A stretch of DNA of 64,000 nucleotides from the NCBI RefSeq assembly GCF_009913235.1, contig NZ_CP047897.1, forward strand, positions 3,223,001 through 3,287,000. Reading direction: 5' to 3'. Positions 1,949-61,251 of this stretch are shown here, in pieces. The notes below the pieces were generated by a model. That model had not been told where the DNA came from and searched no databases. It was given only the letters and a program-made list of their open reading frames with translations. Positions within the stretch are counted from its first letter, which is position 1; each line of letters opens with the position of its first letter. Made by a program: the position numbers and the translations under genes. This stretch comes from Nibribacter ruber (lineage in GTDB: Bacteria; Bacteroidota; Bacteroidia; Cytophagales; Hymenobacteraceae).

Positions 1949-1986
1949 CGTTTTTAGCCTCTTTTCCTGAAAACAGCCCAAAAACG
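1949..1986. repeat. 38-bp intergenic palindrome, copy 1
   Basis: Outer arms CGTTTTT and AAAAACG are intact, but the inner GCCTC and CAGCCC do not pair fully. It sits between the kinase terminator and the tsaC promoter. Confidence 0.85.
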
Positions 1987-2029
1987 GTGGCGCTGAGAAG
2001 GCATAGCTGAAAATAAGCTGAGAACGTAC

Positions 2030-2037
2030 TAGCTTTG
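2030..2037 (+). promoter_or_regulatory. Bacteroidota -7 box for tsaC
   Basis: TAGCTTTG matches TAnnTTTG exactly. No clear -33 TTTG was found. Its position means a start codon at 2035 would overlap the promoter, which favours ATG 2056 for the gene. Confidence 0.5.
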
Positions 2038-2055
2038 CATCCTTATATCAGCAAC

Positions 2056-3027
2056 ATGGCACGCATCGGCAAAGACATACCAACGGCAGTTTCATACCTA
2101 ACCCAAGGCGATTTGGTGGCCATCCCTACAGAGACGGTCTACGGGTTGGCGGCCAATGCCTATGATGAGGCCGCCGTGGTCAAAATCTTTGAAGCCAAGA
2201 ACCGCCCCGCCTTTGACCCGCTCATTGTACATACCCACTCTGTGCAGGAACTAGAAAAGATTGCCCGTGAGGTGCCAGATGTAGCCTATAAACTAGCCGA
2301 ACGCTTCATGCCCGGTCCGCTCACGCTCATCCTCCCCAAGTCTGAGCAAGTGCCGTTGCTGGTCACCTCGGGCCATGATTCTGTGGGCATCCGCATCCCC
2401 AACCACCCGCTCACGCTAGACTTACTAAAGCAGTTGCCCTTTCCGCTGGCGGCGCCCAGCGCTAACCCATTCGGTTACGTGAGCCCCACCACCGCCCAGC
2501 ACGTGCAGGACCAGCTAGACCAACGCATTCCCTATATCTTAGACGGCGGCGCCAGCAACATCGGGATTGAGTCTACTATTATAAGAGTAATAGGGGATGA
2601 GGTAGAAGTGTTACGCTTGGGCGGCTTGGCCCTGGAGGAACTGGAAGAATTAGTGCAGATTTCGCGCGCCAATATCAAAACCTCTAGCTCTAACCCAGCC
2701 GCGCCCGGCATGCTGAGCAGCCACTACAACCCTGGTAAAAAAGTCTTTTTAGGACATGTAGCTCAAAACCTAGAAAGGATAGAGGACAAATCAAGGGTAG
2801 GGATCATTTCTCTGCAACAGCAATTCTCAGCTATACCAGCGCACCATCAAATCCAGCTTTCAGAAACTGGTGATTTAAGTGAAGCCGCCCGGAATCTATT
2901 CTCTGCCTTGCGCAGGTTAGACACCCCCACAGTTGACATCATCCTAGCAGAGCGTATGCCAGAACATGGGCTAGGCCTCGCCATTAATGACCGCCTGCAG
3001 CGCGCCAGCTTTCAAGGGGAAGAGTAA
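2056..3027 (+). CDS. tsaC: L-threonylcarbamoyladenylate synthase (TsaC/Sua5, YrdC family)
   Basis: Makes threonylcarbamoyl-AMP from threonine, bicarbonate and ATP, the first step of the t6A37 modification in ANN-decoding tRNAs. The YrdC/Sua5 core is clear: IPTETVYGLAANAYDE near the N-terminus, KNRPAFDPLIVH, RFMPGPLTLILPKS, then the SVGIRIPNHP and APSANPFGYVSPT motifs. After GMLSSHYNPGKK a C-terminal Sua5 domain follows, so this is the long Sua5 form (about 323 residues) rather than the short TsaC. An in-frame ATG at 2035 overlaps the -7 box, so I start at 2056 (MARIGKDIP). The next gene begins 12 bp after the stop and is probably cotranscribed. Confidence 0.93.
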   Translation: MARIGKDIPTAVSYLTQGDLVAIPTETVYGLAANAYDEAAVVKIFEAKNRPAFDPLIVHTHSVQELEKIAREVPDVAYKLAERFMPGPLTLILPKSEQVPLLVTSGHDSVGIRIPNHPLTLDLLKQLPFPLAAPSANPFGYVSPTTAQHVQDQLDQRIPYILDGGASNIGIESTIIRVIGDEVEVLRLGGLALEELEELVQISRANIKTSSSNPAAPGMLSSHYNPGKKVFLGHVAQNLERIEDKSRVGIISLQQQFSAIPAHHQIQLSETGDLSEAARNLFSALRRLDTPTVDIILAERMPEHGLGLAINDRLQRASFQGEE

Positions 3028-3038
3028 TAATAGGAATC

Positions 3039-3593
3039 ATGAAAAGAAATTTCCTCCTACACGTCCTGCTGGCATGTTCCTCAATTACTCATTCATCTTG
3101 TCAAAGACCGAAGAAAATAAAATCCAAAGAATTTGGATTGGAGATTAAGACACATGGCCTTGGTCCAAGGTTTGAAGCTTTTATGTACAATACTGAAGTC
3201 AATGTCTATGACCAACAGCGCTTCAAAATCAACAATGGACGCTTGGATGAAAACACGCTCTATGTTTTAAAGCATCATTACAAAGATACAATTGAGGTAG
3301 TTGATACCTTGAAAGTAAAGTTTGAGGAGGACTCCGTTGATTCGCTGTATATTTTGAGTTATGCCTATCTCAAGACAATAAATATGGACAATGAGATGGA
3401 TGAAAGTGATAGAAGTAGAATAAGAGAAGATATAAAGGATGGGGCAAGCTTTTCTGTTTCACTGCTTTATAACAAGAAGATATTAGAGGCTTCGCAATGG
3501 GGGCTGAGAGGAGTAAGAAGAGCATCTGGTCAAGCAGACCAGCTTTTTGACTTCATTAATAGAAGGTTACCTGAAGAGTTTAAGTTGTATTAG
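3039..3593 (+). CDS. Hypothetical lipoprotein
   Basis: 184 residues, no family recognised. The N-terminus has two basic residues, a short hydrophobic stretch and SSC at about residues 19-21, compatible with a lipoprotein signal peptide, although the lipobox is not canonical. The mature part is charged and mixed alpha/beta in appearance. It starts 12 bp after tsaC and shares its terminator, so it is probably in the same transcript. It is visibly more A+T-rich than tsaC, which suggests a separate origin. Envelope location is inferred from the signal peptide only. Confidence 0.65.
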   Translation: MKRNFLLHVLLACSSITHSSCQRPKKIKSKEFGLEIKTHGLGPRFEAFMYNTEVNVYDQQRFKINNGRLDENTLYVLKHHYKDTIEVVDTLKVKFEEDSVDSLYILSYAYLKTINMDNEMDESDRSRIREDIKDGASFSVSLLYNKKILEASQWGLRGVRRASGQADQLFDFINRRLPEEFKLY

Positions 3594-3618
3594 CAACACT
3601 CAATTAATAAACATCTCT

Positions 3619-3656
3619 CGTTTTTAGCTTACTTTCTGGAAAACAGGCCAAAAACG
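3619..3656. repeat. 38-bp intergenic palindrome, copy 2
   Basis: Lies between convergent genes, with centre CTGGA and right arm AACAGGCCAAAAACG. It is 10 bp from the terminator hairpin that follows. Confidence 0.85.
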
Positions 3657-3666
3657 GCGTCAATAA

Positions 3667-3702
3667 AAAAGGCTCCCGTTCATCAAAGAACGGGAGCCTT
3701 TT
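3667..3702. terminator. Bidirectional terminator between convergent genes
   Basis: A 15-bp stem (3667-3681 with 3688-3702), GC-rich core with A and T tails, and a 6-base loop. It serves the lipoprotein on + and the peptidase on -. Confidence 0.85.
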
Positions 3703-3722: not shown

Positions 3723-5921
3723 CTACAAGTTGCGCAGGATAAACTCGGTCATTTTAGTGAATAGGTGAATGGTGGTGTTGCCGCCGCTGATGCCGTGGTT
3801 CCGGTTAGGGTAGTAGGCGCTTTCAAACGGACGGTTGGCTTTCACCAAGGCGTTGGTCATCTCAATGGAGTTCTGGAAATGCACGTTGTCATCGCCAGTG
3901 CCATGAATGAGCAGGTATTTGCCTTTCAAGCGGTCTGCGTAGAATACCGGCGAGTTCTTGTCATAACCGTCTGGGTTCTCCTGGGGAGTTTTCAAGAAAC
4001 GCTCGGTATAGATGGTGTCATAGAAGCGCCAGTTGGTCACCGGGGCCACCGCAATGGCCGCTTTGAAAACATCAGCGCCTTTGGTAATGGCCAAAGAACT
4101 CATATAGCCCCCGAAGCTCCAGCCCCAGATACCAATTCTGCTTTTGTCTACATATGGCAGGTTGCCTAAATGCTTCGCGCCTTCAATCTGGTCAATTACT
4201 TCATAGTGGCCTAAGTTGCCATAGGTTACTTTCTTGAAGTCAGCGCCACGTCCGCCGGTTCCGCGGTTGTCAATTACGGCCACAATGTAGCCTTGGTTGG
4301 TTAAGTAGCTGTGCCACAGGTAGTTTCTGCCTCTCCAGCTATCCACTACTTCTTGGCTTCCCGGACCGCTGTACTGGAACATGAGCACTGGGTACTTCTT
4401 GTTCGGGTCAAAATCTGCCGGTTTGATGGTGTAGCCGTTCAGGTTAACTCCCTCCGACGTCTTGAACTGGAAAAACTCGGCCTTAGGTAGGTTGTAATTG
4501 GCTAAAGTAGTCTTCAGGCTCTCATTGCTCTCCAAGACTTTAATCTGCTTTCCGTCTGACGTATGCAGGCTTACCACCGTCGGGCTGGTGATGGTAGAGT
4601 AATAGTCCAGGTAGTATTTGAAATCACGGCTCAGGTTGATGGTGTGCGTGCCTTTGGCCGGCGTCAGGCTTTTCTTGTTCTTGCCGTTCAAGCCCATGCT
4701 GTACAGGTGACGCTCTAGAGGAGAAACCTCGGTTGAGGTGAAGTACACCAAGCCGTTCTTCTCATCTACGCCGTAGAAGTTGGCCACTTCCCAATTGCCT
4801 TTGGTGATTTGACGCACCAGCTTGCCGTTCATGTCATACAGGTACAGGTGGTTGAAGCCGTCCTTCTCTGAGCTGTGCACAAACTGCTTGCCGTTCTTCA
4901 GGTAATTCAAGTCATCAGTGATGTCAATGTAGGCTTTGTCGGTTTCCTTCAAAACCACTTTGCTTTGGCCGGTCTGGGAGTTGGCGTGCAGAATCTCCAG
5001 GGTGTTCTGCAGGCGGTTCATTCTTCTGATAGAAAGAAGGTTGGGCGTGTTGGTCCAGTTGATGCGCGGAATGTACTGGTCGGTCTCATTGCCGGTGTCC
5101 ATCTTGGTGGTCTTGCCAGACCCTAGGTCGAAGGTGTAAATGGCCACGGTGGCGTTTTTCTCACCAGCCTTCGGGTATTTGAACTTGTAGTCAGTTGGGT
5201 ACAAAGGTCCCCAGGTCTGCATGTTGTACTCTGGTACCTGGCTCTCATCGAACTTATAGAAGGCAATCTGATTGCCCTGCGGTGACCAGAAGAAAGCCTG
5301 CGCGAAGCTGAATTCCTCCTCATACACCCAGTCCGTACCGCCGTTGATGATGAAGTTCCACTTGCCGTCATTGGTCACTTGGCGCTCCTGCATAGAGGCC
5401 AAGTCTACGTAAAACAGGTTGTTATCACGCACGAAGGCCACGTACTTGTTGTCCGGCGAGAAGGTAGCATAGCTCTGCTTTCCGCCTTGGCTCAGCTTCT
5501 GCAATTTCTTGCTGGCTCGGTCATACACGTAAAAATGACCTTTACTGCTTCTGCGATAAATCGGCTCATGCTCGGTCTCAAACAAGATTTTGGTCTCATC
5601 TGTACTGAAGCTGTAGTCATCGTAGTTCAGGATTTTGCCGTCAATTTTGATGTCTTCGCCCTCAATGATGGTGCTCACCGGCTGGCCCGTGGTCACGTCT
5701 ACCTGCACTACGTCCACGCTCTGGTTTTTCTGGTCGGCTACCTGGCTGGAGTAGAACTGGCCATTGCGCATCCAGTTCACGCCGTACACCGATTTGGCCT
5801 GGAACGTGCCCTTCCGGAAGATGTCGTCTAAATCAAAGCTTCGCTTCTGCTGGGCCTGCGCCTGTAGGGCAGTACCTACCACGGCTACTGTCAACAGCCA
5901 ACGTTGTATGGTTTGTCTCAT
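3723..5921 (-). CDS. Dipeptidyl-peptidase IV family serine peptidase (S9B)
   Basis: 732 residues with a Sec signal peptide ending in LQAQAQQ, so it is periplasmic. An N-terminal DPPIV beta-propeller carries the WVYEEEF motif, the double Glu that anchors the substrate N-terminus in DPP-IV. A C-terminal alpha/beta-hydrolase domain has the triad Ser602 (GWSFGG), Asp677 (HGTGDDNVHF) and His709 (NRNHGISGG); spacings of 75 and 32 match the family. It should release X-Pro or X-Ala dipeptides from peptides imported or made in the periplasm. It is a single gene on the minus strand, closed downstream by the bidirectional terminator. Its upstream spacer of 676 bp is repeat-rich. Confidence 0.95.
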   Translation of the reverse strand: MRQTIQRWLLTVAVVGTALQAQAQQKRSFDLDDIFRKGTFQAKSVYGVNWMRNGQFYSSQVADQKNQSVDVVQVDVTTGQPVSTIIEGEDIKIDGKILNYDDYSFSTDETKILFETEHEPIYRRSSKGHFYVYDRASKKLQKLSQGGKQSYATFSPDNKYVAFVRDNNLFYVDLASMQERQVTNDGKWNFIINGGTDWVYEEEFSFAQAFFWSPQGNQIAFYKFDESQVPEYNMQTWGPLYPTDYKFKYPKAGEKNATVAIYTFDLGSGKTTKMDTGNETDQYIPRINWTNTPNLLSIRRMNRLQNTLEILHANSQTGQSKVVLKETDKAYIDITDDLNYLKNGKQFVHSSEKDGFNHLYLYDMNGKLVRQITKGNWEVANFYGVDEKNGLVYFTSTEVSPLERHLYSMGLNGKNKKSLTPAKGTHTINLSRDFKYYLDYYSTITSPTVVSLHTSDGKQIKVLESNESLKTTLANYNLPKAEFFQFKTSEGVNLNGYTIKPADFDPNKKYPVLMFQYSGPGSQEVVDSWRGRNYLWHSYLTNQGYIVAVIDNRGTGGRGADFKKVTYGNLGHYEVIDQIEGAKHLGNLPYVDKSRIGIWGWSFGGYMSSLAITKGADVFKAAIAVAPVTNWRFYDTIYTERFLKTPQENPDGYDKNSPVFYADRLKGKYLLIHGTGDDNVHFQNSIEMTNALVKANRPFESAYYPNRNHGISGGNTTIHLFTKMTEFILRNL

Positions 5922-5995
5922 TCTAGTTTGTTAGATAGTTCTCAGCCTTAAAAATAGGGATTTATTTCGGCTTTGGCCTAAGAACGATGGCAAGG

Positions 5996-6033
5996 CGTTT
6001 TTAGCTTGTTTTCTGGGAATTAGCCGAAAAATG
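5996..6033. repeat. 38-bp intergenic palindrome, copy 3 (degenerate)
   Basis: CGTTTTTAGC and the central TTTTCTGG are kept, while the right arm has drifted (AGCCGAAAAATG). It lies upstream of the DPP-IV gene. Confidence 0.6.
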
Positions 6034-6558: not shown

Positions 6559-6596
6559 CGTTTTTGCCCTATTTTCACCAAAACAGGCAGAAAACG
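6559..6596. repeat. 38-bp intergenic palindrome, copy 4
   Basis: It ends one base before the complement of the aldehyde dehydrogenase stop codon, so it would be the first thing transcribed after that gene. Confidence 0.85.
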
Positions 6597-6597
6597 A

Positions 6598-8040
6598 TCA
6601 CAACTTCACACAAACATTCTGCGCCTCGGTGAAGAAACGCAGAGCTTCCCAACCGCCTTCACGGCCTACGCCGCTTTGTTTCATGCCCCCGAAAGGCGTG
6701 CGCAAATCCCGGAGCAACCAAGTGTTCACCCAGACCATGCCAGCGTGCAGTTGATGCGAGACGCGATGGGCGCGGGTGAGGTCATTGGTCCAGACGGAGG
6801 CAGAGAGTCCGTATTCGGTGGCGTTGGCGTAGGAAATGGCGTCTTCCTCGGTGTCAAAAGGAATGAGCGTGACCACCGGCCCGAAGATTTCCTCGGTATT
6901 GGTCCGGCAGGAGTGAGGCAGGTTCTCAAAGACGGTGGGCTGTAGGAAAAACCCATTGGCACATCGGCCTTCCAATTGAACGCGTTGTCCGCCCGTAAGC
7001 AAAACACCGCCTTCTTCTTTGGCCAGTTCAATGTACTGCAATACTTTCTGCAGATGCGCTTCTGAGACCAGAGCGCCTTGTTTGGTGTCGGCCAACATTG
7101 GGTCACCCACGGTTAAGGTTTTGACGCGTTCTAAGAAAGCCGATTTGAATTGGTCATACAGCGGACGCTCTATTAGAATGCGCGAACCGCAAAGACAGAT
7201 TTGGCCTTGGTTGGAGAAAGCGGACTGCACGGCAGTGGCCACGGTTTTCTCAAAGTCACAATCGGCAAAGATGACAGTAGCGTTCTTTCCGCCTAACTCC
7301 AGTGACAGTTTCTTAAACAAGGGCGCGGCCGTTCTGGCAATGGTTTTCCCGGTTTGGGTGCCGCCGGTGAAGGAAATGGCTTTCACCGAAGGATGTTCGC
7401 AGAGAGGCGCGCCTACGTTGGGGCCGGTGCCGTGCACAATGTTCAAGACGCCTGCGGGCAAGCCGGCTTCTATGCACAGCTCAGACAGAAGATAAGCGGT
7501 GTAGGGCGTGATTTCTGAGGGCTTGGCGACTACGCAGTTTCCGGCGGCTATGGCAGGGGCAATCTTCCAGGTGAATAAATAAAGTGGCAAGTTCCACGGG
7601 GAAATGCAGGCCACCACACCTAAAGGTTTGCGCACCGTATAGTTTACCGCCACGCCCTCCATGAAATGCGACTCAGACGCAAAGTGCTGAATGCCCGTCC
7701 CGAAGAAATGCATGTTACTGCTGGCCCTCGGGATGTCTACGGTCTTGGCCAGCCAAAGCGGTTTACCATTGTCGGTGGTCTCAGCTTCGGCTAGTCTATC
7801 CAAGTTCTGGTCAATGAGCTCAGAGATGCGCATCAAATACCGCCCCCGCTTCTCCGCTGACAAATTGGACCACGCTAGAAATGCCTCTTCCGCCGATTTT
7901 ATCGCTTCTAAGACATCCTGCTCCCCAGAATCCGGAATCTGGGAATAGACCTCGCCGGTGGCTGGATTGATGTTAGGCAAGTACTGACCAGAAGCGGGCG
8001 CTACCAGTTTCCCGTTGATGTAATTCTGCAGGTGAAGCAT
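6598..8040 (-). CDS. Aldehyde dehydrogenase, probable 2-aminomuconate-6-semialdehyde dehydrogenase
   Basis: A full-length NAD(P)-dependent aldehyde dehydrogenase of 480 residues. NAD-site motif FTGGTQTGKTI, general-base Glu in LELGGKNA and nucleophile Cys in FSNQGQICLCGSR are present. The overall pattern (LQNYINGK start, GVVACISPWNLPLYLFTWK, CLCGSRILIE) is that of the 2-hydroxymuconic/2-aminomuconic semialdehyde dehydrogenase branch (ALDH8-like). The neighbours encode 3-hydroxyanthranilate dioxygenase, ACMS decarboxylase, kynureninase and kynurenine monooxygenase, so the likely reaction is 2-aminomuconate semialdehyde to 2-aminomuconate. A GTG start 12 bp upstream (8052) is possible; I prefer ATG 8040. 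A 38-bp palindrome follows the stop directly. Confidence 0.88.
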   Translation of the reverse strand: MLHLQNYINGKLVAPASGQYLPNINPATGEVYSQIPDSGEQDVLEAIKSAEEAFLAWSNLSAEKRGRYLMRISELIDQNLDRLAEAETTDNGKPLWLAKTVDIPRASSNMHFFGTGIQHFASESHFMEGVAVNYTVRKPLGVVACISPWNLPLYLFTWKIAPAIAAGNCVVAKPSEITPYTAYLLSELCIEAGLPAGVLNIVHGTGPNVGAPLCEHPSVKAISFTGGTQTGKTIARTAAPLFKKLSLELGGKNATVIFADCDFEKTVATAVQSAFSNQGQICLCGSRILIERPLYDQFKSAFLERVKTLTVGDPMLADTKQGALVSEAHLQKVLQYIELAKEEGGVLLTGGQRVQLEGRCANGFFLQPTVFENLPHSCRTNTEEIFGPVVTLIPFDTEEDAISYANATEYGLSASVWTNDLTRAHRVSHQLHAGMVWVNTWLLRDLRTPFGGMKQSGVGREGGWEALRFFTEAQNVCVKL

Positions 8041-8166: not shown

Positions 8167-8242
8167 AGTAGGGGCAATCCCTTGTGGTTGCCCTCTTACA
8201 TTGGCTCCCGTGATAGGGCAACCACAAGGGATTGCCCCTACT
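8167..8242. repeat. GTAGGGGCAATCCC-type inverted repeat, copy 1
   Basis: Perfect 28-bp arms (8167-8194 and 8215-8242) around a 20-base loop. A second, slightly decayed member lies at 14946-15013. A 72-codon minus-strand frame across it (8083-8298) is only repeat sequence. Confidence 0.85.
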
Positions 8243-8257: not shown

Positions 8258-8295
8258 CGTTTTTGGCCTGTTTCCCAGAAAACAGGCCAAAAACG
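8258..8295. repeat. 38-bp intergenic palindrome, copy 5
   Basis: Near-perfect copy with GGCC in both arms and centre CCCAGA. It is 28 bp past the SDR stop, between SDR and aldehyde dehydrogenase. Confidence 0.88.
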
Positions 8296-9215: not shown

Positions 9216-9443
9216 GTCATCCTGAAAGGACTCTGTGAGCGAACTAGATAGGCGTTAGAGTAAACGCTATTCTCCCCTTGAGGGGGGCGAAGTGGGGTGT
9301 TTACATCAGTTGATTATAGCAAAGATGGCAATGCGCAGGAGACAAGGCAGTGCCTGGTCTCTACAATTGGAACATGTGTTTAATAGTAATTGCGCTTATC
9401 CAACCGCCTGCCTAGTTCGCTCACAAGGTCCTTTCAGGAGGAC
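9216..9443 (+). mobile_element. MITE-like element, copy A (about 228 bp)
   Basis: Terminal inverted repeats of about 30 bp begin GTCATCCTGAAAGGAC at 9216 and end in its complement at 9443, followed inward by GCGAACTA. It has no reading frame. The interior carries a CCCCTTGAGGGG-type palindrome near 9273-9300 and a GAGACAAGGCAGTGCCTGGT segment near 9340-9360. The same modules occur in the opposite orientation at 40095-40325, so the two are copies of one non-autonomous element. Confidence 0.8.
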
Positions 9444-9508
9444 ATGGAAGAGAGAAAGGGTAATTTGAAGTTTAATAAAAAACACAAACAGGAGAAATTC
9501 TAATTCAT

Positions 9509-9546
9509 CGTTTTTGGCCTGTTTTCCAGAAAATAGGCTAAAAACG
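9509..9546. repeat. 38-bp intergenic palindrome, copy 6
   Basis: Good copy with centre CCAGA, about 90 bp upstream of the dioxygenase start. Confidence 0.87.
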
Positions 9547-12702: not shown

Positions 12703-12740
12703 CGTTTTTAGCCTATTTCCCAGAAAACAGGCCAAAAACG
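12703..12740. repeat. 38-bp intergenic palindrome, copy 7
   Basis: Good copy with centre CCCAGA, 5 bp from the yebC stop codon and 10 bp from the terminator hairpin. Confidence 0.87.
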
Positions 12741-14448: not shown

Positions 14449-14486
14449 TATTTTATGCTAGTTCTCCAAAAAATAGCCCAAAAACG
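14449..14486. repeat. 38-bp intergenic palindrome, copy 8 (degenerate)
   Basis: The right arm AATAGCCCAAAAACG is intact; the left arm has drifted (TATTTTATGCTAG). It ends 2 bp from the RidA stop. Confidence 0.6.
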
Positions 14487-14884: not shown

Positions 14885-14945
14885 TTTATTGATTGTTAGT
14901 TGCTGATTGTAAGTTGTTGGTGGAGTAATGTAGTGAGAAAATAAA

Positions 14946-15013
14946 GTAGGGGCAATCCCTAGTGGTTGCCCTTTACGGTGGCAGACGCGTTAGGGCAACC
15001 ACGATGCCCCTAC
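14946..15013. repeat. GTAGGGGCAATCCC-type inverted repeat, copy 2
   Basis: The left arm (14946-14972) matches copy 1 closely, while the right arm (14992-15013) lacks 5 bases of the repeat. It lies between the divergent RidA and ACMS decarboxylase genes. Confidence 0.8.
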
Positions 15014-15042
15014 ATGTTGAGACCAGCAATCAGCAATCTATC

Positions 15043-15080
15043 CGTTTTTCGCCTGTTTTCCAGAAAGTAGCCCAAAAACG
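15043..15080. repeat. 38-bp intergenic palindrome, copy 9
   Basis: Good copy, about 80 bp upstream of the decarboxylase start. Confidence 0.85.
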
Positions 15081-16218: not shown

Positions 16219-16243
16219 TACAAAAGCCTGACAAGGTTAGTAT

Positions 16244-16356
16244 TTCCTCGCTCGCCTCTGGCGAGTGTGAGCATCCCGTGGCCTCTGGCCGCTACAAAAG
16301 TTCACATCGGCCAGAGGCCTGAAGTAGCTCACACTCGCCGGAGGCGAGCGAGGGAA
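16244..16356. repeat. 113-bp nested inverted repeat
   Basis: Outer arms of about 30 bp (TCGCTCGCCTCTGGCGAGTG, 16244-16273, against 16325-16356) and inner arms GGCCTCTGGCCG / CGGCCAGAGGCC (about 16279-16320). It is directly followed by a 38-bp palindrome. It is unrelated in sequence to the other repeats here. Confidence 0.8.
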
Positions 16357-16360: not shown

Positions 16361-16398
16361 TGTTTTTTGCCTGTTTTCTAGAAAATAGGCAAAAAACA
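16361..16398. repeat. 38-bp intergenic palindrome, copy 10
   Basis: Almost perfect palindrome (one mismatch), centre CTAG, with TG/CA at the ends instead of CG/CG. It lies between ACMSD and kynU. Confidence 0.88.
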
Positions 16399-17991: not shown

Positions 17992-18059
17992 TATAAAAAA
18001 TGCTTCCGTTTTTGGGCTGTTTTCTAGAAAACAGCCCAAAAACGGAAGCATTTTTTATA
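17992..18059. repeat. 68-bp perfect palindrome built around a 38-bp element
   Basis: Every base from 17992 pairs with its partner up to 18059, with no loop (centre CTAG at 18024-18027). The core 18007-18044 is a 38-bp family member; the outer 15 bp (TATAAAAAATGCTTC) are specific to this site. The A-run before and T-run after would make it a bidirectional terminator for kynU. Confidence 0.92.
18007..18044. repeat. 38-bp intergenic palindrome, copy 11 (perfect)
   Basis: Both arms carry GGGCTG/CAGCCC and pair fully. It forms the core of the 68-bp palindrome. Confidence 0.92.
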
Positions 18060-20057: not shown

Positions 20058-20095
20058 CGTTTTTAGCCTATTTTCAAGAAAACAGGCTAAAAACG
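20058..20095. repeat. 38-bp intergenic palindrome, copy 12
   Basis: Lies between the convergent alkB-like and membrane-protein genes. Inner arms are AGCCTA / CAGGCT. Confidence 0.85.
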
Positions 20096-20783: not shown

Positions 20784-21290
20784 TCAAAATTCCAGAGCAG
20801 TCTGGTACACGCCGCTCAGTTTGGCCTCATGTTCCAGCAGCCATTTCTTGCGCCAGAGGCCGCCGGCATAGCCTACCAATTCTCCCTTCCCGCCGATGAC
20901 GCGGTGACAGGGAACGATGACCAGCCAGGGGTTGGCGCCGTTGGCCACGCCCACTGCCCGCACCGCACCCGGGTTCTCAAAGCGTTTGGCCAACCCTAAA
21001 TACGTGTCTGTCTTACCCATAGGAATCTGTTGTAAGGCCTGCCAGACTTGTTGTTGGAAAGCAGTTCCTTGTGGCTGTAATGGCAAGTCAAACGTAGAGC
21101 GCTCGCCGGCGAAGTAGGCGTTCAGTTGCGCTTCGGCTTCTCTTAAGATGGCCGGAATAACGTCCGAATCCGTTTTTTGCTCATTTTCTGGAAAACTCAC
21201 CGAAACCAGCTGCGTGTCATTGGCGGTCAGGCGAAGGGTGCCCAAAGGGCTGGGCAGGTGCAACACAAACGGAGCGGCGGCAGTAGGCAT
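20784..21290 (-). CDS. ogt: Methylated-DNA--protein-cysteine methyltransferase
   Basis: Repairs O6-alkylguanine by transferring the alkyl group to its own Cys128 in PCHRVIG; 168 residues from ATG 21290 (a TTG at 21317 is less likely). The methyltransferase domain reads GTAFQQQVWQALQQIPMGKT, then NPGAVRAVGVANGANPW and VPCHRVIGGKGELVGYAGGL. The N-terminal ribonuclease-H-like part contains VSFPENEQKTDS. That segment is encoded by a degenerate copy of the 38-bp palindrome (21171-21208), so a repeat seems to have become part of the coding sequence in a poorly conserved loop. It is divergent from kmo. Confidence 0.95.
   Translation of the reverse strand: MPTAAAPFVLHLPSPLGTLRLTANDTQLVSVSFPENEQKTDSDVIPAILREAEAQLNAYFAGERSTFDLPLQPQGTAFQQQVWQALQQIPMGKTDTYLGLAKRFENPGAVRAVGVANGANPWLVIVPCHRVIGGKGELVGYAGGLWRKKWLLEHEAKLSGVYQTALEF
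21171..21208. repeat. 38-bp palindrome, copy 13, inside ogt coding sequence
   Basis: CGTTTTTTGC, then TCATTTTCTGGAAAACTCAC and CGAAACC: left arm and centre match the family, while the right arm is partly lost. It is read in frame as FPENEQKTD. Confidence 0.6.
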
Positions 21291-22751: not shown

Positions 22752-22789
22752 CGTTTTTAGGCTATTTCCCAGAAAAGAGGCCAAAAACA
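22752..22789. repeat. 38-bp intergenic palindrome, copy 14
   Basis: Begins 9 bp after the kmo stop. Left arm CGTTTTTAGGCT, right arm AGGCCAAAAACA. Confidence 0.82.
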
Positions 22790-25750: not shown

Positions 25751-25792
25751 AAACCAGAAGGCCCGATGATCAATCACCGGGCCTTCTGGTTT
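25751..25792. terminator. Intrinsic terminator after CHASE kinase
   Basis: A 15-bp stem (25751-25765 with 25778-25792) whose right arm runs into the T-run of a 38-bp element. Confidence 0.85.
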
Positions 25793-25825
25793 TTGGGCTG
25801 TTTTCTGGAAATCATGCCAGAAACG
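25788..25825. repeat. 38-bp palindrome, copy 15, overlapping a terminator
   Basis: GGTTTTTGGGCTGTTTTCTG is followed by a weaker right arm (ATGCCAGAAACG). Its first 5 bases are also the terminator's right arm. Confidence 0.72.
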
Positions 25826-26503: not shown

Positions 26504-26541
26504 CGTTTTTAGCCTGTTTTACGGAAAACAGCCCAAAAACG
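26504..26541. repeat. 38-bp intergenic palindrome, copy 16
   Basis: Fits between the GNAT stop (26553) and the lipoprotein start (26495) on the minus strand, 8 bp upstream of the start codon, so it lies in the 5' leader of the lipoprotein if the two genes are cotranscribed. Confidence 0.85.
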
Positions 26542-29936: not shown

Positions 29937-29974
29937 CGTTTTTGGGCTGTTTTCTGGAAAAGAGGCGAAAAACG
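29937..29974. repeat. 38-bp intergenic palindrome, copy 18
   Basis: One base from the kinase stop, in the 73-bp gap between the LytS-like kinase and LytTR regulator genes. If these are one operon the element is transcribed between them. Confidence 0.85.
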
Positions 29975-31778: not shown

Positions 31779-31816
31779 CGTTTTTAGCCTGATTTCTGGA
31801 AAAGAAGCCAAAAACG
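31779..31816. repeat. 38-bp intergenic palindrome, copy 19
   Basis: Between the TonB receptor stop and the TPR gene start. Centre CTGGA. Confidence 0.85.
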
Positions 31817-34142: not shown

Positions 34143-34180
34143 CGTTTTTAGTCTATTTTTGGCAAAACAGGCTAAAAATG
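34143..34180. repeat. 38-bp intergenic palindrome, copy 20
   Basis: Upstream of the TonB receptor and downstream of the lipocalin-like gene. The centre TTTTTGGCAAAA is unlike most copies. Confidence 0.8.
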
Positions 34181-34894: not shown

Positions 34895-34932
34895 TGTTTT
34901 TAGGCTATTTTCATCAAAACAGGCTAAAAACG
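34895..34932. repeat. 38-bp intergenic palindrome, copy 21
   Basis: Left TGTTTTTAGGCT, right CAGGCTAAAAACG. Two bases from the terminator hairpin at 34934. Confidence 0.82.
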
Positions 34933-35552: not shown

Positions 35553-35590
35553 CGTTTTTGGCTTGTTTTCAGGAAAAGAAGCCAAAAACG
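35553..35590. repeat. 38-bp intergenic palindrome, copy 22
   Basis: 12 bp downstream of the PH-like gene stop (35603, minus strand). Inner arms GGCTTG / AAGCCA. Confidence 0.82.
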
Positions 35591-40431: not shown

Positions 40432-40469
40432 CGTTTTCAGCCTGATTCCCAGAAAACAGGCCAAAAACG
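40432..40469. repeat. 38-bp intergenic palindrome, copy 23
   Basis: Centre CCCAGA. Its last 7 bases (AAAAACG) also form the left arm of the terminator that follows. Confidence 0.82.
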
Positions 40470-41309: not shown

Positions 41310-41347
41310 CGTTTTTGGCTAGTTTCCCAGAAAAGAAGCCAAAAACG
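41310..41347. repeat. 38-bp intergenic palindrome, copy 24
   Basis: Between the small membrane gene and the M28 terminator, with centre CCCAGA and inner arms GGCTAG / AAGCCA. Confidence 0.83.
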
Positions 41348-43522: not shown

Positions 43523-43560
43523 CGTTTTTGACCCCATTTCCACAAAACAGCCCAAAAACA
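43523..43560. repeat. 38-bp palindrome, copy 25, next to a start codon
   Basis: Ends two bases before ATG 43563 of the enoyl-CoA hydratase gene. The right arm CAGCCCAAAAACA replaces any usual ribosome-binding region. Confidence 0.8.
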
Positions 43561-44345: not shown

Positions 44346-44383
44346 CGTTTTTAGGCTATTTTACAAAAAACAACCCAAAAACG
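44346..44383. repeat. 38-bp intergenic palindrome, copy 26
   Basis: Starts on the base after the stop codon of the hydratase. Its final ACG is shared with the terminator stem. Confidence 0.8.
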
Positions 44384-47170: not shown

Positions 47171-47204
47171 GAAGGCCAACCGGAGGAGTCTCTGGTTGGC
47201 CTTC
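47171..47204. terminator. Terminator of the DUF4142 array
   Basis: An 11-bp stem GAAGGCCAACC / GGTTGGCCTTC (47171-47181 with 47194-47204); its T-run is supplied by the palindrome element that starts at 47204. Confidence 0.82.
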
Positions 47205-47241
47205 GTTTTTAGGCTATTTCCTGGAAAACAAGCCAAAAACG
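47204..47241. repeat. 38-bp intergenic palindrome, copy 27
   Basis: Abuts the terminator stem. Inner arms AGGCTA / AAGCCA. Confidence 0.82.
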
Positions 47242-47892: not shown

Positions 47893-47930
47893 CGTTTTTG
47901 GGCTGTTTTCAGAGAAACAGCCCAAAAACG
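47893..47930. repeat. 38-bp intergenic palindrome, copy 28
   Basis: Fully paired inner arms GGGCTG / CAGCCC. It touches the uvrA stop codon at 47931. Confidence 0.87.
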
Positions 47931-50900
47931 CTACTCGGTTTTCTTCTTTTTGGGGCCGGGCTTTTTCTTCTCCTTCACCTCTGAACTGGTAGAACCATCC
48001 ACGTTTTCCTCTTTCTTTTTGCGGCCTCTGGGCTTCTTCTCCTTCACTTCTTCCACAGGCGCATCGTCAAAGGTGTCTTCTGGTTCATCGGCTACAAACT
48101 TGGGCGCGTCTACGTACAGGCTGGTACTCAGCTCGTCCTTTAAGAAGCGTGAGGTATGGCCTAAACCGGTGGCGGCTACTTCTTCTGGCGTTCCTTGGGC
48201 TACAATAGAGCCGCCCTTGGCACCGCCTTCTGGTCCTATGTCAATCACATGGTCCGCTACTTTAATCAGGTCCATGTTGTGCTCAATGATGAGTACGGAA
48301 TTGCCTTTGTCTACCAGACGGTTTAAGACGTCTGAGAGGTGTTCAATGTCCTGGAAGTGAAGACCCGTGGTAGGTTCATCTAGAATGTACAGCGTGCGGC
48401 CCGTGTCTTTCTTGGAAAGCTCCGTCGCCAGTTTGACGCGCTGTGCTTCACCACCAGAAAGGGTAGTCGCCTGTTGGCCCAGGGTGATATAGCCTAAGCC
48501 TACATCATTTAGGGTCTTAATCTTGCGCAGGATTCTAGGCTGGTGCTCAAAGAACTCCACCGCCTGCTCTACGGTCATGTCCAGAATATCCGTTACCGAC
48601 TTGCCTTTGAACCTTACTTCTAGGGTTTCGCGGTTGTAGCGCTTGCCTTTGCAGGTCTCACACGGCACGTATACGTCTGGCATGAAGTTCATCTCAATGG
48701 TACGCATACCGGCACCCTCACAGGTCTCACAGCGGCCACCTTTCACATTAAAGGAGAACCTGCCCGCCGCATAGCCTCTAATCTTGGCCTCGGGCATAGA
48801 CGCGAACAAGCTTCTAATCTCGGTGAACACACCAGTATAAGTGGCCGGGTTAGAGCGCGGCGTACGTCCGATTGGGCTTTGATCTACTTCAATGACCTTG
48901 TCAATATGGTTCAGGCCTTCAATACCCTTGAACGGAAGCGGCTCACGCTTGGCATGGAAGAAATGCTTGTTCAGGATGGGGTACAACGTGTCATGAATCA
49001 ACGACGATTTTCCACTCCCCGAAACCCCGGTCACGCAAATCAACTTACCCAAAGGCAGTTCCAGCGTTACGTCTTTCAGGTTGTGGCCAGTGGCTCCGCG
49101 CAGAATAACAGACTTACCATTGCCTTCACGCTTTTGACGGCGCACGGGAATACCTCTTCTATAGCTTAAATAGTCTGCGGTGGTGGTACCGCTTTCCATC
49201 ATTTCTTGAGGCGTACCAGCGGTTACAATCTGTCCGCCGTGAATACCCGCTCCCGGACCAATATCCACCACGTAATCGGCGGCCAGAATCATGTCTTTGT
49301 CGTGCTCTACTACCACCACTGAGTTGCCCAGGTCACGTAAGTCCTGCAAAGCCTTAATCAGCTTTTCATTGTCACGCTGGTGCAAACCAATGCTAGGTTC
49401 ATCCATGATGTAGAGCACACCCACCAACTGCGTACCAATCTGCGTGGCCAATCTAATCCGTTGGCTTTCACCACCAGACAGTGTTCGCACGGAGCGGTGC
49501 AAATGCAGGTATTCCAATCCCACGTCTACCAGGAAACCAATCCGCTTGCGGATCTCTTTCAGAAGCTCGCGGGCGATGAGGTTCTGGCGGTCATTGAGGC
49601 GGTCTTCCAGGTTGGCAATCCAGTCAGCGAGCTGTTGGATGTCCATTTCAGACAGTTGCCCAATGTGGGTGTTGTCCAGTTTGAAGTGCAGGGATTCCTT
49701 CTTCAAGCGGTAGCCGTTACACTCGGGGCAGGTGCTCTGCTGGGTGTATTCCTGAATCCAGGCGCGCACGTTGTCAGAGTCAGACTCCAGTTGTTTCTTC
49801 AAGAAGTTGATGACACCCTCAAACACGAACGGCTCTTTCTTGCCTTTGGGGTCTTCCTCTTCAAAACCGTACATGAGCTGGTGCCACGCTTCCTCAGGGA
49901 TGTCCTCAATGGGAGCCATCAAAGAAAGCTTATGACGCTTGAGCAGGGCCTGTATCTGCGAGAAAATCCAGATGTCGCGGTACTCGCCTAGCGGCGCAAT
50001 CCCGCCCCGGCTAATGCTCACGCTTTTGCTGGGTACTATGGATTCCTCGGTTAGTTCCTGGATTTCGCCCAAGCCATTACACACTGGGCACGCGCCGTAG
50101 GGTGAGTTGAAGGAGAAGGTATTTGGGGCCGGATCATCATACGCAATGCCCGTGGCCGGGTCCATCAAGTGACGGGAATAGAACTGCGTCTCGTTGGTGT
50201 CGGCGTCCATGGCCAGGGCGGTGCCTTTGCCGTGTTGCAACGCGTTCTGGATAGAGGTAGACAGGCGGTAGCGGTCCTCAGCAGACGGTACCAGCTTGTC
50301 AATCACAATCTCAATGTCGTGGATTTTGTAGCGGTCCACCTGCATTTTGGGCGTGAGTTCCACCAGTTCGCCGTCAATGCGGGCACGCAGGAACCCCATC
50401 TTGCGTATCTGCTCAAACAGCTCGCGGTAATGGCCCTTACGGCCTTTCACCACAGGCGCCAGAATGATGGTGCGCTTGCCGTTGAAGTACTCCATGATGT
50501 GATTCACAATCTGGTCGTCAGACTGCTTCACCATCTTCTCACCGGTCTCATAACTGAAGGCCTCGGCGGTACGGGCGTATAGCAGACGCAGGAAGTCATA
50601 AATCTCAGTGATGGTGCCCACGGTGGAGCGCGGGTTGCGCGACGTGGTTTTCTGCTCGATAGAAATCACCGGCGAAAGCCCTTCAATCTTGTCTACGTTG
50701 GGACGTTCCATGCCCCCCAGAAAGGAGCGGGCGTAGGCCGAAAACGTCTCCATGTAGCGGCGCTGGCCCTCGGCGTAGATGGTGTCAAAGGCCAGGGAGG
50801 ATTTTCCCGAGCCCGAGATACCCGTGAAGACCACCAACTCATTGCGCGGTATCTTCAGGCTGATGTTCTTGAGGTTGTGCTCCCGGGCCCCGTACACTTC

Positions 50901-50975
50901 AATGAAGGGCACATCCACGGTGGTTGAGGTATGTTTGTTGGCTACCTGCGTAGCATCCGTATCTTTTGGCGTCAT
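47931..50975 (-). CDS. uvrA: Excinuclease ABC subunit A
   Basis: 1014 residues. Damage-recognition ATPase of nucleotide excision repair. The two ABC modules have Walker [11 protein letters not shown] and [10 protein letters not shown], signature LSGGESQR and LSGGEAQR, and zinc modules ([24 protein letters not shown] with CETCKGKR). The [19 protein letters not shown] region matches UvrA. It is about 70 residues longer than usual: an N-terminal extension of about 20 and a C-terminal tail of about 60 with two basic, AT-hook-like patches (KKPRGRKKK and [10 protein letters not shown]) separated by an acidic linker. The tail could add DNA affinity. Promoter box at 50999. Confidence 0.97.
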
Positions 50976-51113: not shown

Positions 51114-51151
51114 CGTTTTTGGCCTGCTTTGGTGAAAAGAGGCTGAAAATG
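51114..51151. repeat. 38-bp intergenic palindrome, copy 29 (diverged)
   Basis: CGTTTTTGGCCTGCTTTGGT, then GAAAAGAGGCTGAAAATG. Lies between the uvrA promoter and the Imm11-like gene. Confidence 0.7.
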
Positions 51152-56009: not shown

Positions 56010-56047
56010 TGGTTTTAGCCTGTTTTCCTGAAAATGAGCCAAAAACG
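56010..56047. repeat. 38-bp intergenic palindrome, copy 30 (diverged)
   Basis: TGGTTTTAGCCTGTTTTCCT and ATGAGCCAAAAACG; the left end has lost CG. It lies between the T9SS gene and the PepSY gene. Confidence 0.75.
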
Positions 56048-57629: not shown

Positions 57630-57664
57630 AAAAGAGCCCGAAACTTTCGTTTTCGGGCTCTTTT
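57630..57664. terminator. Terminator of the LOG-family gene
   Basis: A 14-bp stem (57630-57643 with 57651-57664), core GAGCCCGAAA, with a 7-base loop. The right arm is also the left part of palindrome copy 31. Confidence 0.82.
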
Positions 57665-57685
57665 CTGGAAAACAGGCCAAAAATG
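57648..57685. repeat. 38-bp palindrome, copy 31, fused with a terminator
   Basis: CGTTTTCGGGCTCTTTTCTG then GAAAACAGGCCAAAAATG. Its left arm is taken from the terminator hairpin, so the two structures exclude each other. Confidence 0.75.
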
Positions 57686-58581: not shown

Positions 58582-58619
58582 CGTTTTTGCCCTGTTTTCT
58601 GGAAAATACGCCAAAAACA
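58582..58619. repeat. 38-bp intergenic palindrome, copy 32
   Basis: Just upstream of the LOG start codon on the minus strand, so in its leader. Left arm CGTTTTTGCCCTG, right GCCAAAAACA. Confidence 0.8.
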
Positions 58620-60054: not shown

Positions 60055-60111
60055 TCTACTCCTTATAGTAACTTAGTTGGCTAAAAGTAAAATAAATTAA
60101 GACAATCTGCC

Positions 60112-60119
60112 TACCTTTG
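60112..60119 (+). promoter_or_regulatory. Bacteroidota -7 box for queA
   Basis: TACCTTTG, exact TAnnTTTG, 41 bp before ATG 60161. No convincing -33 box. Confidence 0.5.
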
Positions 60120-60160
60120 CCCTCTATTTTTGTAGATATTTTAATACCGTAATATTAAAT

Positions 60161-61207
60161 ATGAAGTTATCAGAGTTCAGATTTGAGTTGCCAGAAGATC
60201 TATTGGCCACTCACCCGGCCACCAATCGCGACGAGGCCCGCATGATGGTCCTGCACCGTGACAGTGGCAAGATTGAGCACAAAATCTTCAAAGACATTAT
60301 TGGCTATTTTGACGAAGGCGACGTGATGGTGACCAACAACACCAAAGTGTTTCCGGCGCGCATGTACGGCAATAAGGAGAAGACCGGTGCCAAGATTGAG
60401 GTGTTCTTGCTACGTGAACTGGACAAGCGCATTCACCTGTGGGACGTACTGGTAGACCCGGCGCGCAAGATACGGGTAGGCAACAAACTCTATTTTGGGG
60501 AAAGCGACCTGGTAGCCGAAGTCATTGACAACACTACCTCTAGAGGCCGTACCATCAAGTTCTTGTTTGACGGCACGGATGAGGAGTTCTACAAGACCAT
60601 TCATGACCTAGGCGAGACCCCCTTGCCTAAATACATCAAGCGCGAGCCAGAGCCAGAAGACCAAGAGCGTTACCAGACGGTGTACGCAGAGATCACCGGC
60701 GCCGTGGCCGCCCCAACCGCCGGTCTGCACTTCACCAAAGAGGTGTTGAAGCGCCTGGAGTTGAAAGGCGTGGACGTGGCGCCTATCACCTTGCACGTAG
60801 GTTTGGGTACTTTCCGTCCGGTAGACGTAGAAGACCTGACCAAGCACAAGATGGACTCTGAGCAGTTCTTCGTGACGGAGGAGACCGCCAACGTGGTCAA
60901 CAAAGCCCTGGACGCCAAGAAACGCGTGTGTGCCATTGGTACCACGTCTATGCGCGCCATGGAGTCTTCGGTGTCTGCCAACAGCCGCCTGAAGCCCAAT
61001 GAAGGCTGGACGGACAAGTTCATCTTCCCTCCGTATGACTTCAAAATCGCCAACAGCTTAATCACCAACTTCCACATGCCGGAGTCTACGCTGCTCATGA
61101 TGGCAGCGGCCTTTGGCGGCTATGACCTGGTCATGGAAGCCTACAGAACCGCCATCAAGGAAGAGTATAAGTTCTTCAGCTACGGTGACGTGATGTTGAT
61201 TCTGTAA
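60161..61207 (+). CDS. queA: S-adenosylmethionine:tRNA ribosyltransferase-isomerase
   Basis: 348 residues. Transfers and isomerises the ribosyl part of SAM to preQ1-modified tRNA, giving epoxyqueuosine. Family motifs: [20 protein letters not shown] at the start, [61 protein letters not shown] and the C-terminal [19 protein letters not shown]. It is a stand-alone gene with its own promoter and terminator. Normal length. The organism therefore uses the queuosine pathway at least from preQ1. Confidence 0.97.
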
Positions 61208-61213
61208 ATATTC

Positions 61214-61251
61214 CGTTTTTAGCCTCTTTTGGCGAAAACAACCCAAAAACG
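61214..61251. repeat. 38-bp palindrome, copy 33, sharing an arm with a terminator
   Basis: Begins 6 bases after the queA stop. The last AAAAACG is also the left arm of the queA terminator. Confidence 0.8.

What the first reader, a model, noticed from the sequence alone, without database searches (positions are those of the whole stretch)
1949..61251. A 38-bp palindrome repeated in nearly every spacer
I count 33 copies of a 37-38-bp inverted repeat (left arm near CGTTTTTRGCCTRTTTTC, right arm its complement). They are spread over 60 kb, about one per 2 kb, and all but one are outside genes. Some copies keep pairing by paired changes (18007 and 47893: GGGCTG with CAGCCC), others have mismatched arms, so the DNA sequence, the hairpin, or both could be selected. 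Many touch a stop codon (6598, 14489, 29976, 44345, 47931). They could be transcription terminators, nucleoid or regulator binding sites, or a self-spreading REP/RPE-type repeat. I know of no named family with this consensus.
Basis: seen in the sequence. Interest (0 to 1): 0.88.

Follow-up and report, generated by a model that had tools for sequence, protein, structure and literature searches.

The report
Genus-wide palindromic chromosome marks in Rufibacter
Rufibacter bacteria carry many hundreds of copies of a 38-letter DNA palindrome, evenly spread along the chromosome at positions kept from species to species but spelled in different 'dialects', as if an unknown protein uses them to recognise or organise the cell's own DNA.

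Summary
In detail: 33 copies, all 18+2+18 bp. They belong to an estimated 1,700 sites in this 4.35 Mb genome (487 in 1.26 Mb sampled; none in shuffled DNA). All 16 Rufibacter genomes searched have the motif; none of 104 other genomes of the family, nor 394 other Bacteroidota genomes, has it. Here the hairpin is not what is kept: arms pair no better than permuted arms (n=487), though 8 of 15 congeners show a weak excess. Half-sites alone are rare. Positions are ancestral: 27 of 33 window sites have a partner in the nearest species, often at the same distance from the stop codon. The consensus shifts between species (firm in about half the genus). Sites avoid genes and promoters, favour convergent gaps, are more even than a one-per-gap null, and are missing or sparse in a metal-resistance island and two large secondary contigs. 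Information is 51 bits where 11 would locate them. Best reading: sites of an unidentified dimeric DNA-binding factor, kept by selection or molecular drive. The closest functional analogue is the DNA-uptake-sequence dialect; chromosome organisation is the main rival. Terminators, REP/RAYT repeats and a ParB paralogue are disfavoured. The factor was not identified, and type IV pilus ATPases were not found.

The parts
1949..1986 (.). 38-bp dyad site
   Evidence: partner in G007
3619..3656 (.). 38-bp dyad site, followed by a terminator-like hairpin at 3667-3702
5996..6033 (.). 38-bp dyad site; flank conserved in G007
6559..6596 (.). 38-bp dyad site, 1 nt from stop of 6598-8040(-); no G007 partner found
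8258..8295 (.). 38-bp dyad site; none in the orthologous gap of G007
9509..9546 (.). 38-bp dyad site in a divergent gap; a site in 10 of 10 orthologous gaps
12703..12740 (.). 38-bp dyad site, 5 nt from stop; 2-5 nt from stop in 10 of 10 congeners with the gene
14449..14486 (.). 38-bp dyad site (weak left arm), 2 nt from stop; 2-11 nt in 8 of 8 congeners with the gene
15043..15080 (.). 38-bp dyad site in a divergent gap; a site in 8 of 8 orthologous gaps
16361..16398 (.). 38-bp dyad site; none in G007, a site in 6 of 10 orthologous gaps
18007..18044 (.). 38-bp dyad site at the apex of a longer inverted repeat ending in T6 (terminator-like); a site in 9 of 9 orthologous gaps
20058..20095 (.). 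38-bp dyad site in a convergent gap; no G007 partner found
21171..21208 (.). weak in-gene site (29 bits) in 20784-21290(-); at the same place in 10 of 12 orthologue rows
22752..22789 (.). 38-bp dyad site; a site in 11 of 14 orthologous gap rows, mostly 8-9 nt from stop
25788..25825 (.). 38-bp dyad site abutting a terminator hairpin
26504..26541 (.). 38-bp dyad site (58 bits) near a doubtful start codon
29073..29110 (.). 38-bp dyad site
29937..29974 (.). 38-bp dyad site, 1 nt from stop; a site in 7 of 7 orthologous gap rows (5 species)
31779..31816 (.). 38-bp dyad site; a site in 5 of 6 orthologous gaps
34143..34180 (.). 38-bp dyad site
34895..34932 (.). 38-bp dyad site abutting a terminator hairpin; no G007 partner found
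35553..35590 (.). 38-bp dyad site; no G007 partner found
40432..40469 (.). 38-bp dyad site
41310..41347 (.). 38-bp dyad site; partner in G007 (the six other orthologous gap rows are over 1.9 kb wide and say little)
43523..43560 (.). 38-bp dyad site near a doubtful start codon; partner in G007
44346..44383 (.). 38-bp dyad site directly after a stop codon; its AAAAACG end overlaps a terminator-like hairpin (44379-44426)
47204..47241 (.). 38-bp dyad site; its CGTTTTT follows a terminator hairpin as the T-tract
47893..47930 (.). 38-bp dyad site directly after the stop of 47931-50975(-), uvrA
51114..51151 (.). 38-bp dyad site
56010..56047 (.). 38-bp dyad site
57648..57685 (.). 38-bp dyad site; left arm overlaps the 3' arm of a hairpin at 57630-57664
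58582..58619 (.). 38-bp dyad site
61214..61251 (.). 38-bp dyad site 6 nt after a stop codon; right end overlaps a terminator-like inverted repeat (61234-61287)

Best explanation
Shown: the palindromes are double-stranded, dyad-symmetric sites, an estimated 1,700 in this genome, present in every Rufibacter genome searched and in no other genus sampled. They are inherited in place and, at least in about half the genus, are spelled in one shared dialect per species. Inferred with high confidence: each is bound by a dimer of one sequence-specific DNA-binding factor, one subunit per half-site. In each half the factor would read GSC in the major groove and the two flanking T-tracts, with a flexible TG/CA/TA step at the centre; when its specificity drifts, the whole set follows. 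Inferred with moderate confidence (my pick, about 0.4): the sites work as self-DNA marks in the manner of DNA uptake sequences. DNA carrying the local dialect would be taken up or recombined preferentially, so good copies spread by allele replacement at their own loci. That would explain the excess information, the dialects, the retreat to permissive places and the depletion in acquired DNA. Not shown: any binding, uptake or transformation.
For: Restriction: 16 of 16 Rufibacter, 0 of 104 other genomes of the family, 0 of 394 other Bacteroidota genomes (a few are in both sets), 0 viral contigs. Dialects: G013 CGTTTTcGGGCTCATTTC (33 sites), G005 CGTTTAGGGGCTnTTTTT (43), G001 (52) and G006 (35) others, with 0 hits in shuffled or reversed chromosome DNA at 15 bits. 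Positions: own versus G007, site in both gaps 19, own only 2, G007 only 0, neither 10 (Fisher 1.5e-6); versus 14 other species 57, 13, 12, 41 (5e-11). Distance from stop: own versus G007 rho 0.92, n=22; versus others rho 0.37, n=104. Constraint: own versus G007 differ at 5.6% in strong columns, 34% in weak ones, 32% at codon position 3. Protein-like: arms independent overall, n=487, p=0.87; 9 solo half-sites against 351 half hits in full sites. Information 50.8 bits versus 11.3 needed. Spacing CV 0.70 versus 0.81, p=0.001. The one site-free stretch of 60 is an island (0 versus 6.8 expected). Large second contigs: G013 3 sites per 80 kb versus 32 per 80 kb of chromosome; R. tibetensis 1 per 40 kb versus 16 per 40 kb (20 bits). 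[quoted passage not shown] dialects (PMC3630211, passages). ComEC and DprA in 16 of 16; comEC itself holds in-gene sites at two fixed places, in 16 of 16 and 15 of 16 genomes at 12 bits or more. Riemerella columbina, also Bacteroidota, prefers its own DNA (PMC7965970, passages).
Against: No type IV pilus/T2SS ATPase over the cut-off in any of 16 genomes, though the control rings in 14 of 14; every DUS/USS system I can recall uses type IV pili. Riemerella transformation needs ComEC, DprA, ComF, RecA and proteins of unknown function, some predicted at the surface (PMC8459023, passages), so this weakens rather than kills the idea. DUS are short and work as single copies; this site is an obligate 38-bp palindrome. 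Competence is unproven in Rufibacter. Chromosome organisation would explain most of the pattern. In-gene conservation is not special to comEC. Arms pair slightly better than permuted (one-sided p below 0.05) in 8 of 15 congeners, and single columns deviate in own (column 7 z +3.7, 15 z +4.1, 13 z -4.2; half-scores correlate, rho 0.20). Between own and G007, whole sites are no more identical (83%) than aligned flank columns (82%), although the flanks fall to 51% once gaps count. The third R. tibetensis contig (7.5 kb) has 2 sites and is not depleted. The profiles of G002, G004, G009, G012, G014 and G015 are weak and partly noise (3-17 hits in shuffled, 5-14 in reversed DNA), so 'one dialect per species' is firm only for about half the genus.
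Confidence: 0.42

Rival explanations
1. Chromosome-organising sites: an abundant dimeric, DNA-bending or bridging nucleoid protein docks about every 2.6 kb, mainly between genes, to shape or insulate the chromosome or handle transcription-driven supercoils. Convergent gaps, where positive supercoils gather, are fullest.
For: Near-uniform density along the chromosome and even spacing; occupancy of 80-400 bp gaps: convergent 78 of 94, co-directional 180 of 345, divergent 40 of 116; phased A/T tracts (sequence) and a central TG/CA/TA step in 337 of 487 sites; depleted on two large second contigs; obligate dyad.
Against: 51 bits is over four times what locating the sites needs; I recall no nucleoid protein whose thousand-odd sites change dialect between sister species; one ParB per genome in the 14 Rufibacter searched, as in most sister genomes, so no Noc-like ParB paralogue. 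The factor was not found.
Confidence: 0.35
2. A REP/REPIN/MITE-type repeat that once spread by transposition, perhaps into terminator hairpins, and is now inherited.
For: Short, palindromic and mostly intergenic; 49 of 486 sites have at least 5 of 7 flanking pairs complementary against about 10 expected, i.e. they sit at the apex of longer hairpins; Y1_Tnp genes in 15 of 16 Rufibacter; weak arm pairing excess in 8 of 15 congeners; identical pairs 28 versus 15.1+-6.4 among sites of 53 bits or more.
Against: G007 has 469 sites with at most 2 mismatches but no Y1_Tnp match at E 0.001; the three own Y1_Tnp loci show only 1-2 sites each; near-identical pairs are hardly commoner than in column-shuffled data once site quality is matched, and their flanks are unrelated; no overall arm covariation in own; no clean empty site in the 4 differing gaps aligned; the acquired island has none.
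Confidence: 0.12
3. Transcription terminators or road-blocks at gene ends.
For: Pile-up at stop codons and convergent gaps; 20 of 202 flanks facing an incoming gene have a hairpin whose T-tract is the site's CGTTTTT.
Against: Ordinary terminators stand beside the sites; strong sites lie inside long reading frames (e.g. 57 and 50 bits in 1158- and 1250-aa genes) and mid-way between divergent genes; arms do not covary overall.
Confidence: 0.05
4. Binding sites of a global transcription regulator.
For: Dimeric-looking operator.
Against: Sites keep away from starts (13 of 99 co-directional sites within 40 nt against 29.9 expected) and lie near gene ends.
Confidence: 0.04

Closest known systems
DNA uptake sequences (DUS) of Neisseriaceae and uptake signal sequences (USS) of Pasteurellaceae
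   Same: Hundreds to thousands of copies, about one per 1-3 kb, core genome, permissive places, absent from recent acquisitions, highly conserved, dialects, often in or next to terminators (PMC2397512, PMC3630211, passages).
   Different: DUS are 10-12 nt and work singly, with a type IV pilus receptor; here an obligate 38-bp dyad, 51 bits, mostly outside genes, no pilus ATPase found, uptake untested.
REP / BIME / REPIN elements with RAYT transposases, and CGTC repeats incl. Rickettsia RPE
   Same: 20-40 bp palindromes in many copies, extragenic.
   Different: No GTAG or CGTC tag in the consensus, no overall hairpin covariation here, no clear copy families, no transposase detected in G007; positions conserved across a genus.
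HIP1 of cyanobacteria
   Same: Highly iterated, clade-limited palindrome.
   Different: HIP1 is GCGATCGC (8 bp; start of the abstract of PMC4390886 in the listing); this is 38 bp, degenerate in fixed columns, and mainly intergenic.
parS / NBS / matS sites of ParB, Noc, MatP (recalled, no call)
   Same: Palindromic chromosome-organising sites read by dimers.
   Different: Far fewer sites, regional, no dialect shift that I recall; no extra ParB here.

Membership tests
DUS/USS | Highly over-represented sequence spread through the core genome at about 1-2 kb spacing | tested here: met
   487 sites in 1.264 Mb (one per 2.6 kb), 0 in shuffle; even spacing
DUS/USS | Absent or rare in recently acquired DNA | tested here: met
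   one island 0 versus 6.8 expected (P 0.001, not corrected for 61 stretches); G013 second contig 3 per 80 kb versus 32; R. tibetensis second contig 1 per 40 kb versus 16; its 7.5 kb third contig has 2 and is not depleted
DUS/USS | Dialects that differ between related species | tested here: met
   firm for G000/G007, G013, G005, G001, G006
DUS/USS | Short non-palindromic core active as a single copy | tested here: not met
   half-sites alone rare: 9 against 351 within full sites
DUS/USS | Type IV pilus machinery with a DNA-binding minor pilin | tested here: not met
   PF00437 over cut-off in none of 16 genomes; the pilin itself was not searched
DUS/USS | Raises uptake or transformation | not testable with these tools
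   needs an experiment
REP/RAYT | GTAG (or CGTC) tag at one end of the palindrome | tested here: not met
   symmetric ends CGTTTTT/AAAAACG; flanks little conserved beyond 1-2 nt; tags per PMC3733652, passages
REP/RAYT | Hairpin maintained by compensatory change | tested here: not met
   own: 14.09 versus 14.13 paired of 18, n=487, p=0.87; in congeners a weak excess in 8 of 15 (p 0.001-0.043), none in G007, G013, G005, G001, G006, G014, G009
REP/RAYT | Cognate Y1 transposase in the genome | tested here: not met
   none at E 0.001 in G007, which has 469 close copies
REP/RAYT | Copies related by duplication | tested here: not met
   within score strata identical pairs 28 versus 15.1+-6.4, 27 versus 24.2+-6.9, 1 versus 0.5; flanks of close pairs 16.4 versus 15.8 of 60
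Intrinsic terminator | Stable hairpin followed by a T-tract, replacing other terminators | tested here: not met
   no conserved T-tract after the 38 bp; ordinary terminators coexist; a minority sits at a terminator apex
ParB/Noc site family | A ParB paralogue reading the site | tested here: not met
   1 ParB_N gene in each of the 14 Rufibacter among the 60 genomes searched
Rfam RNA families | Match to a described structured RNA | tested here: not met
   0 matches at gathering score in the window

The most novel reading that the evidence does not exclude
A self-recognition code in Bacteroidota: a palindromic, dimer-read, dialect-forming DNA uptake (or self-DNA licensing) sequence, working without type IV pili, that isolates Rufibacter species genetically and fills the chromosome through molecular drive; its drift in situ at over a thousand loci would be one of the largest cases of a DNA-binding specificity and its sites evolving together.
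Probability: 0.35. Interest if true: 0.95.

Novelty: new variant of a known kind. Interest (0 to 1): 0.86.

Why it matters
About 1.5% of the chromosome (1,677 x 38 bp by the estimate) is held in a code that one unknown factor probably reads, and the code changes between sister species while positions stay put. Either it is an uptake-sequence system in Bacteroidota, where Riemerella transformation depends on proteins of unknown function, or it is a nucleoid protein with far more and far more specific sites than any I can recall. Both make open questions testable in bacteria from soil and water: how binding specificity changes when over a thousand sites must follow, and what keeps species' gene pools apart.

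Tried and rejected
Hairpin/RNA reading: pair counts and permutations gave nothing in favour for the own genome; one search gave one-sided p below 0.05 in 8 of 15 congeners (G012 0.001, G010 0.005, G015, G004, G008, G003, G002, G011 0.025-0.043; excess 0.4-0.75 of 18 pairs), which I ascribe, without proof, to copies at terminator apices. Rfam: nothing. REP/RAYT: Y1_Tnp searches and copy-family tests (63, 64). In one search close pairs exceeded column shuffling (28 identical versus 2.7); one search showed this comes mostly from unequal site quality: within strata 28 versus 15.1+-6.4 (53 bits and up), 27 versus 24.2+-6.9 (57 and up), 1 versus 0.5 (46-57); at 5-6 differences the top strata still show a modest excess. 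Empty sites between own and G007: the 4 gaps that differ are too diverged for a clean boundary. Sister genera: the long palindromes printed for 25 loci (counts) do not fit the pattern and many look like terminators. Noc-like ParB: one gene per Rufibacter genome. Orientation by central TG versus CA: slight arm asymmetry and 92 versus 60 relative to gene direction, not pursued.

The binding protein could not be sought systematically: it needs whole proteomes of several genera. The gene finder in the scripts is a simple in-frame hexamer model, so start codons and small genes are uncertain. Shuffle controls are first-order Markov, one shuffle per sequence.

Rows dropped: the 34th weak hit; gaps under 60 or over 900 bp and all but one row per species; six window sites without a G007 partner; sites under 30 bits; congener sites under 12 bits.
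Full report
What is there. The window lies in a 4.35 Mb single-contig genome. Its genes (T9SS sorting domain, a SusC/RagA protein, RpoN, UvrA) point to Bacteroidota. G009 is R. tibetensis by its 235,438-bp second contig, the length of plasmid record NZ_CP012644. All 33 copies are real, 38 bp each.

How many, and how sure. In 1.264 Mb (window plus 60 stretches) I count 487 sites of 18 bits or more and 498 of 5 bits or more; shuffled DNA gives 0 at 5 bits. That scales to about 1,677 per genome, one per 2.6 kb, along the whole chromosome (7.57 per 20 kb, variance 6.22). The pattern count is 894 at two mismatches with a zero backward control.

What is conserved. Columns 1-7, 9, 12, 14-17 and their mirrors are strong. 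In this genome the two arms vary independently overall: 82.7% of cells paired against 83.1% shuffled over the 33 copies; 14.20 versus 14.12 of 18, p=0.15, n=185; 14.09 versus 14.13, p=0.87, n=487. Single columns deviate both ways (7 and 15 up, 13 down) and the two half-scores correlate weakly (rho 0.20), so some sites are better than others on both sides. In 8 of 15 congeners arms pair slightly better than permuted (p 0.001-0.043), in 7 not, among them G007, G013, G005, G001 and G006 with clear dialects. So sequence, not the folded strand, carries most of the constraint. Solo half-sites: 9, at least two pairs of them only 20 bp apart and probably the halves of sites with an indel, against 351 half hits within full sites. 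The centre is TG, CA or TA in 337 of 487. T-tracts at 3-7 and 14-17 and A-tracts at 22-25 and 32-36 are roughly helically phased within each arm, so the site is probably bent; that is inference. Total information is 50.8 bits where 11.3 suffice to locate the sites; 43-56 bits in G007, G013, G005, G001, G006, 18-42 in the others from smaller samples.

Where they lie. Of 185 sites in the first 464 kb, 168 are intergenic, 2 partly and 15 inside predicted genes although 84% of the DNA is coding. In the full sample, occupancy of 80-400 bp gaps is 78 of 94 convergent, 180 of 345 co-directional and 40 of 116 divergent. In co-directional gaps the median is 31 nt from the stop (82 expected) and 110 nt from the start (82 expected). 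Given one site per gap, spacing is still more even than chance (CV 0.703 versus 0.805, p=0.001). Of 31 sites inside complete predicted genes, 19 lie more than 150 nt from the start; these are denser in genes of 3 kb or more (5 in 101 kb versus 14 in 934 kb, p=0.03). Ten hosts scanned include a histidine kinase, a C25 peptidase, TilS, a Mur ligase and an HhH-GPD protein, no common theme.

Terminators. 23 of 368 flanks have a strong hairpin abutting the site (0 of 368 shuffled flanks, 1 of 366 at 40 nt away), 20 of them facing an incoming gene, so the site's own CGTTTTT serves as T-tract. Another group sits at the apex of longer inverted repeats (49 of 486 with at least 5 of 7 flank pairs, about 10 expected). 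In other gaps the site lies between the stop and an ordinary terminator. Sites thus share permissive ground with terminators but most are not terminators.

Relatives. A relaxed genus pattern occurs in 16 of 16 Rufibacter (6 to 693 exact copies) and 0 of 104 other genomes of the family; 0 of 394 other Bacteroidota genomes (a few shared); 0 viral contigs. De novo profiles show the same 38-bp dyad with a different consensus: firm for G013, G005, G001 and G006 and, close to own, G007; weaker and partly noise for G002, G004, G009, G012, G014 and G015. In a seven-gene tree the own species, G007, G013, G001, G008 and G006 group together (support 0.999; several inner nodes poorly supported) while G005 lies elsewhere.

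Descent in place. For gaps of 60-900 bp with both flanking genes conserved, own against G007: site in both 19, own only 2, G007 only 0, neither 10; own against 14 others: 57, 13, 12, 41. Distances from the stop are kept in many cases: for the gene ending at 12746, 5 nt here and 2-5 nt in 10 of 10 congeners; for the gene ending at 14489, 2 nt here and 2-11 nt in 8 of 8; own versus G007 rho 0.92 and median difference 1 nt (n=22); versus others rho 0.37, median difference 22 nt against 36 permuted (n=104). 27 of 33 window sites have a G007 partner; strong columns differ at 5.6%, weak at 34%, codon third positions at 32%. Taken whole, sites are 83% identical between the two, aligned flank columns 82%, flanks with gaps 51%: the constraint lies in the strong columns and in the absence of indels. 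Copies show little sign of duplicate families once site quality is matched.

Acquired DNA. The only one of 60 stretches of 20 kb with no site (6.8 expected, P=0.001, about 0.07 after allowing for 61 stretches) carries RND efflux, metal P-type ATPases, MerT, an integrase-core gene and a HerA/SIR2 pair. The 155 kb second contig of G013 (metal resistance genes; not proven to be a plasmid) has 3 sites of 20 bits in 80 kb sampled against 32 in 80 kb of chromosome; the R. tibetensis second contig has 1 in 40 kb against 16 in 40 kb, but its 7.5 kb third contig has 2.

What it does. [quoted passage not shown] The excess information and dialect shift at fixed loci follow naturally from drive. Machinery: ComEC 16 of 16, DprA 16 of 16, but no type IV pilus ATPase over the cut-off in any. 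In Riemerella, another Bacteroidota, transformation needs ComEC, DprA, ComF, RecA and proteins of unknown function (PMC8459023, passages), and R. columbina prefers its own DNA (PMC7965970, passages). So a pilus-free uptake code is possible but unproven. In the course of this test I found that comEC itself contains sites at two fixed places, near nt 1740 in 16 of 16 genomes (22-58 bits) and near nt 195 in 15 of 16 (20-55 bits; cut-off 12 bits; the reversed loci gave 3 hits in all 16), while ComEC is 53-66% identical outside G007. Two in-gene sites in one 2.1 kb gene are rare here (0.04 expected, P about 0.0007 at the own rate), but in-gene sites of other genes are also conserved in place and I had not predicted this, so it is suggestive only. 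The main rival is a chromosome-organising dimer, which the obligate dyad and the convergent-gap preference suit well and the excess information suits badly.

Literature. Searches on Rufibacter with 'palindromic' and with 'genome' and 'intergenic', extragenic palindromes in Bacteroidetes, Bacteroidetes nucleoid proteins with palindromic sites and uptake sequences in Bacteroidetes listed no account of this family by title or abstract; only open-licence papers were searched.

Noticed in passing
L245:9817-11907 and orthologues in L246-L260: comEC carries in-gene sites at the same two places in 16 of 16 and 15 of 16 Rufibacter genomes, mostly in species dialect.
   Followed up: partly
L227 (own genome 2.69-2.71 Mb): Metal-resistance island with RND efflux, P-type ATPases, MerT, an integrase-core gene and a HerA/SIR2 pair that looks like a defence module (the last point is recall).
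   Followed up: partly
window 5895-5996: About 100 bp directly before the site at 5996 is nearly identical between own and G007 while the rest of the gap aligns poorly; a possible leader or regulatory RNA, no Rfam match.
   Followed up: no
window 16243-16356: 49-nt imperfect inverted repeat just before the site at 16361, absent from G007; perhaps another repeat family.
   Followed up: no
window 8167-8242 and roughly 14900-15040: AGTAGGGGCAATCCC...GGTTGCCC-type inverted repeat and a similar sequence in the other gap, possibly a second dispersed repeat.
   Followed up: no
window 9390-9503: Small 37-codon reading frame with some coding signal ending 5 nt before the site at 9509 in a divergent gap.
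   Followed up: no
all 16 Rufibacter genomes: Three in-gene sites of window orthologues are kept at one codon position in many species (6598-8040 nt 891 in 8 of 9, 8324-9112 nt 225 in 7 of 10, 20784-21290 nt 85-94 in 10 of 12 rows), two of them absent from own and G007.
   Followed up: no
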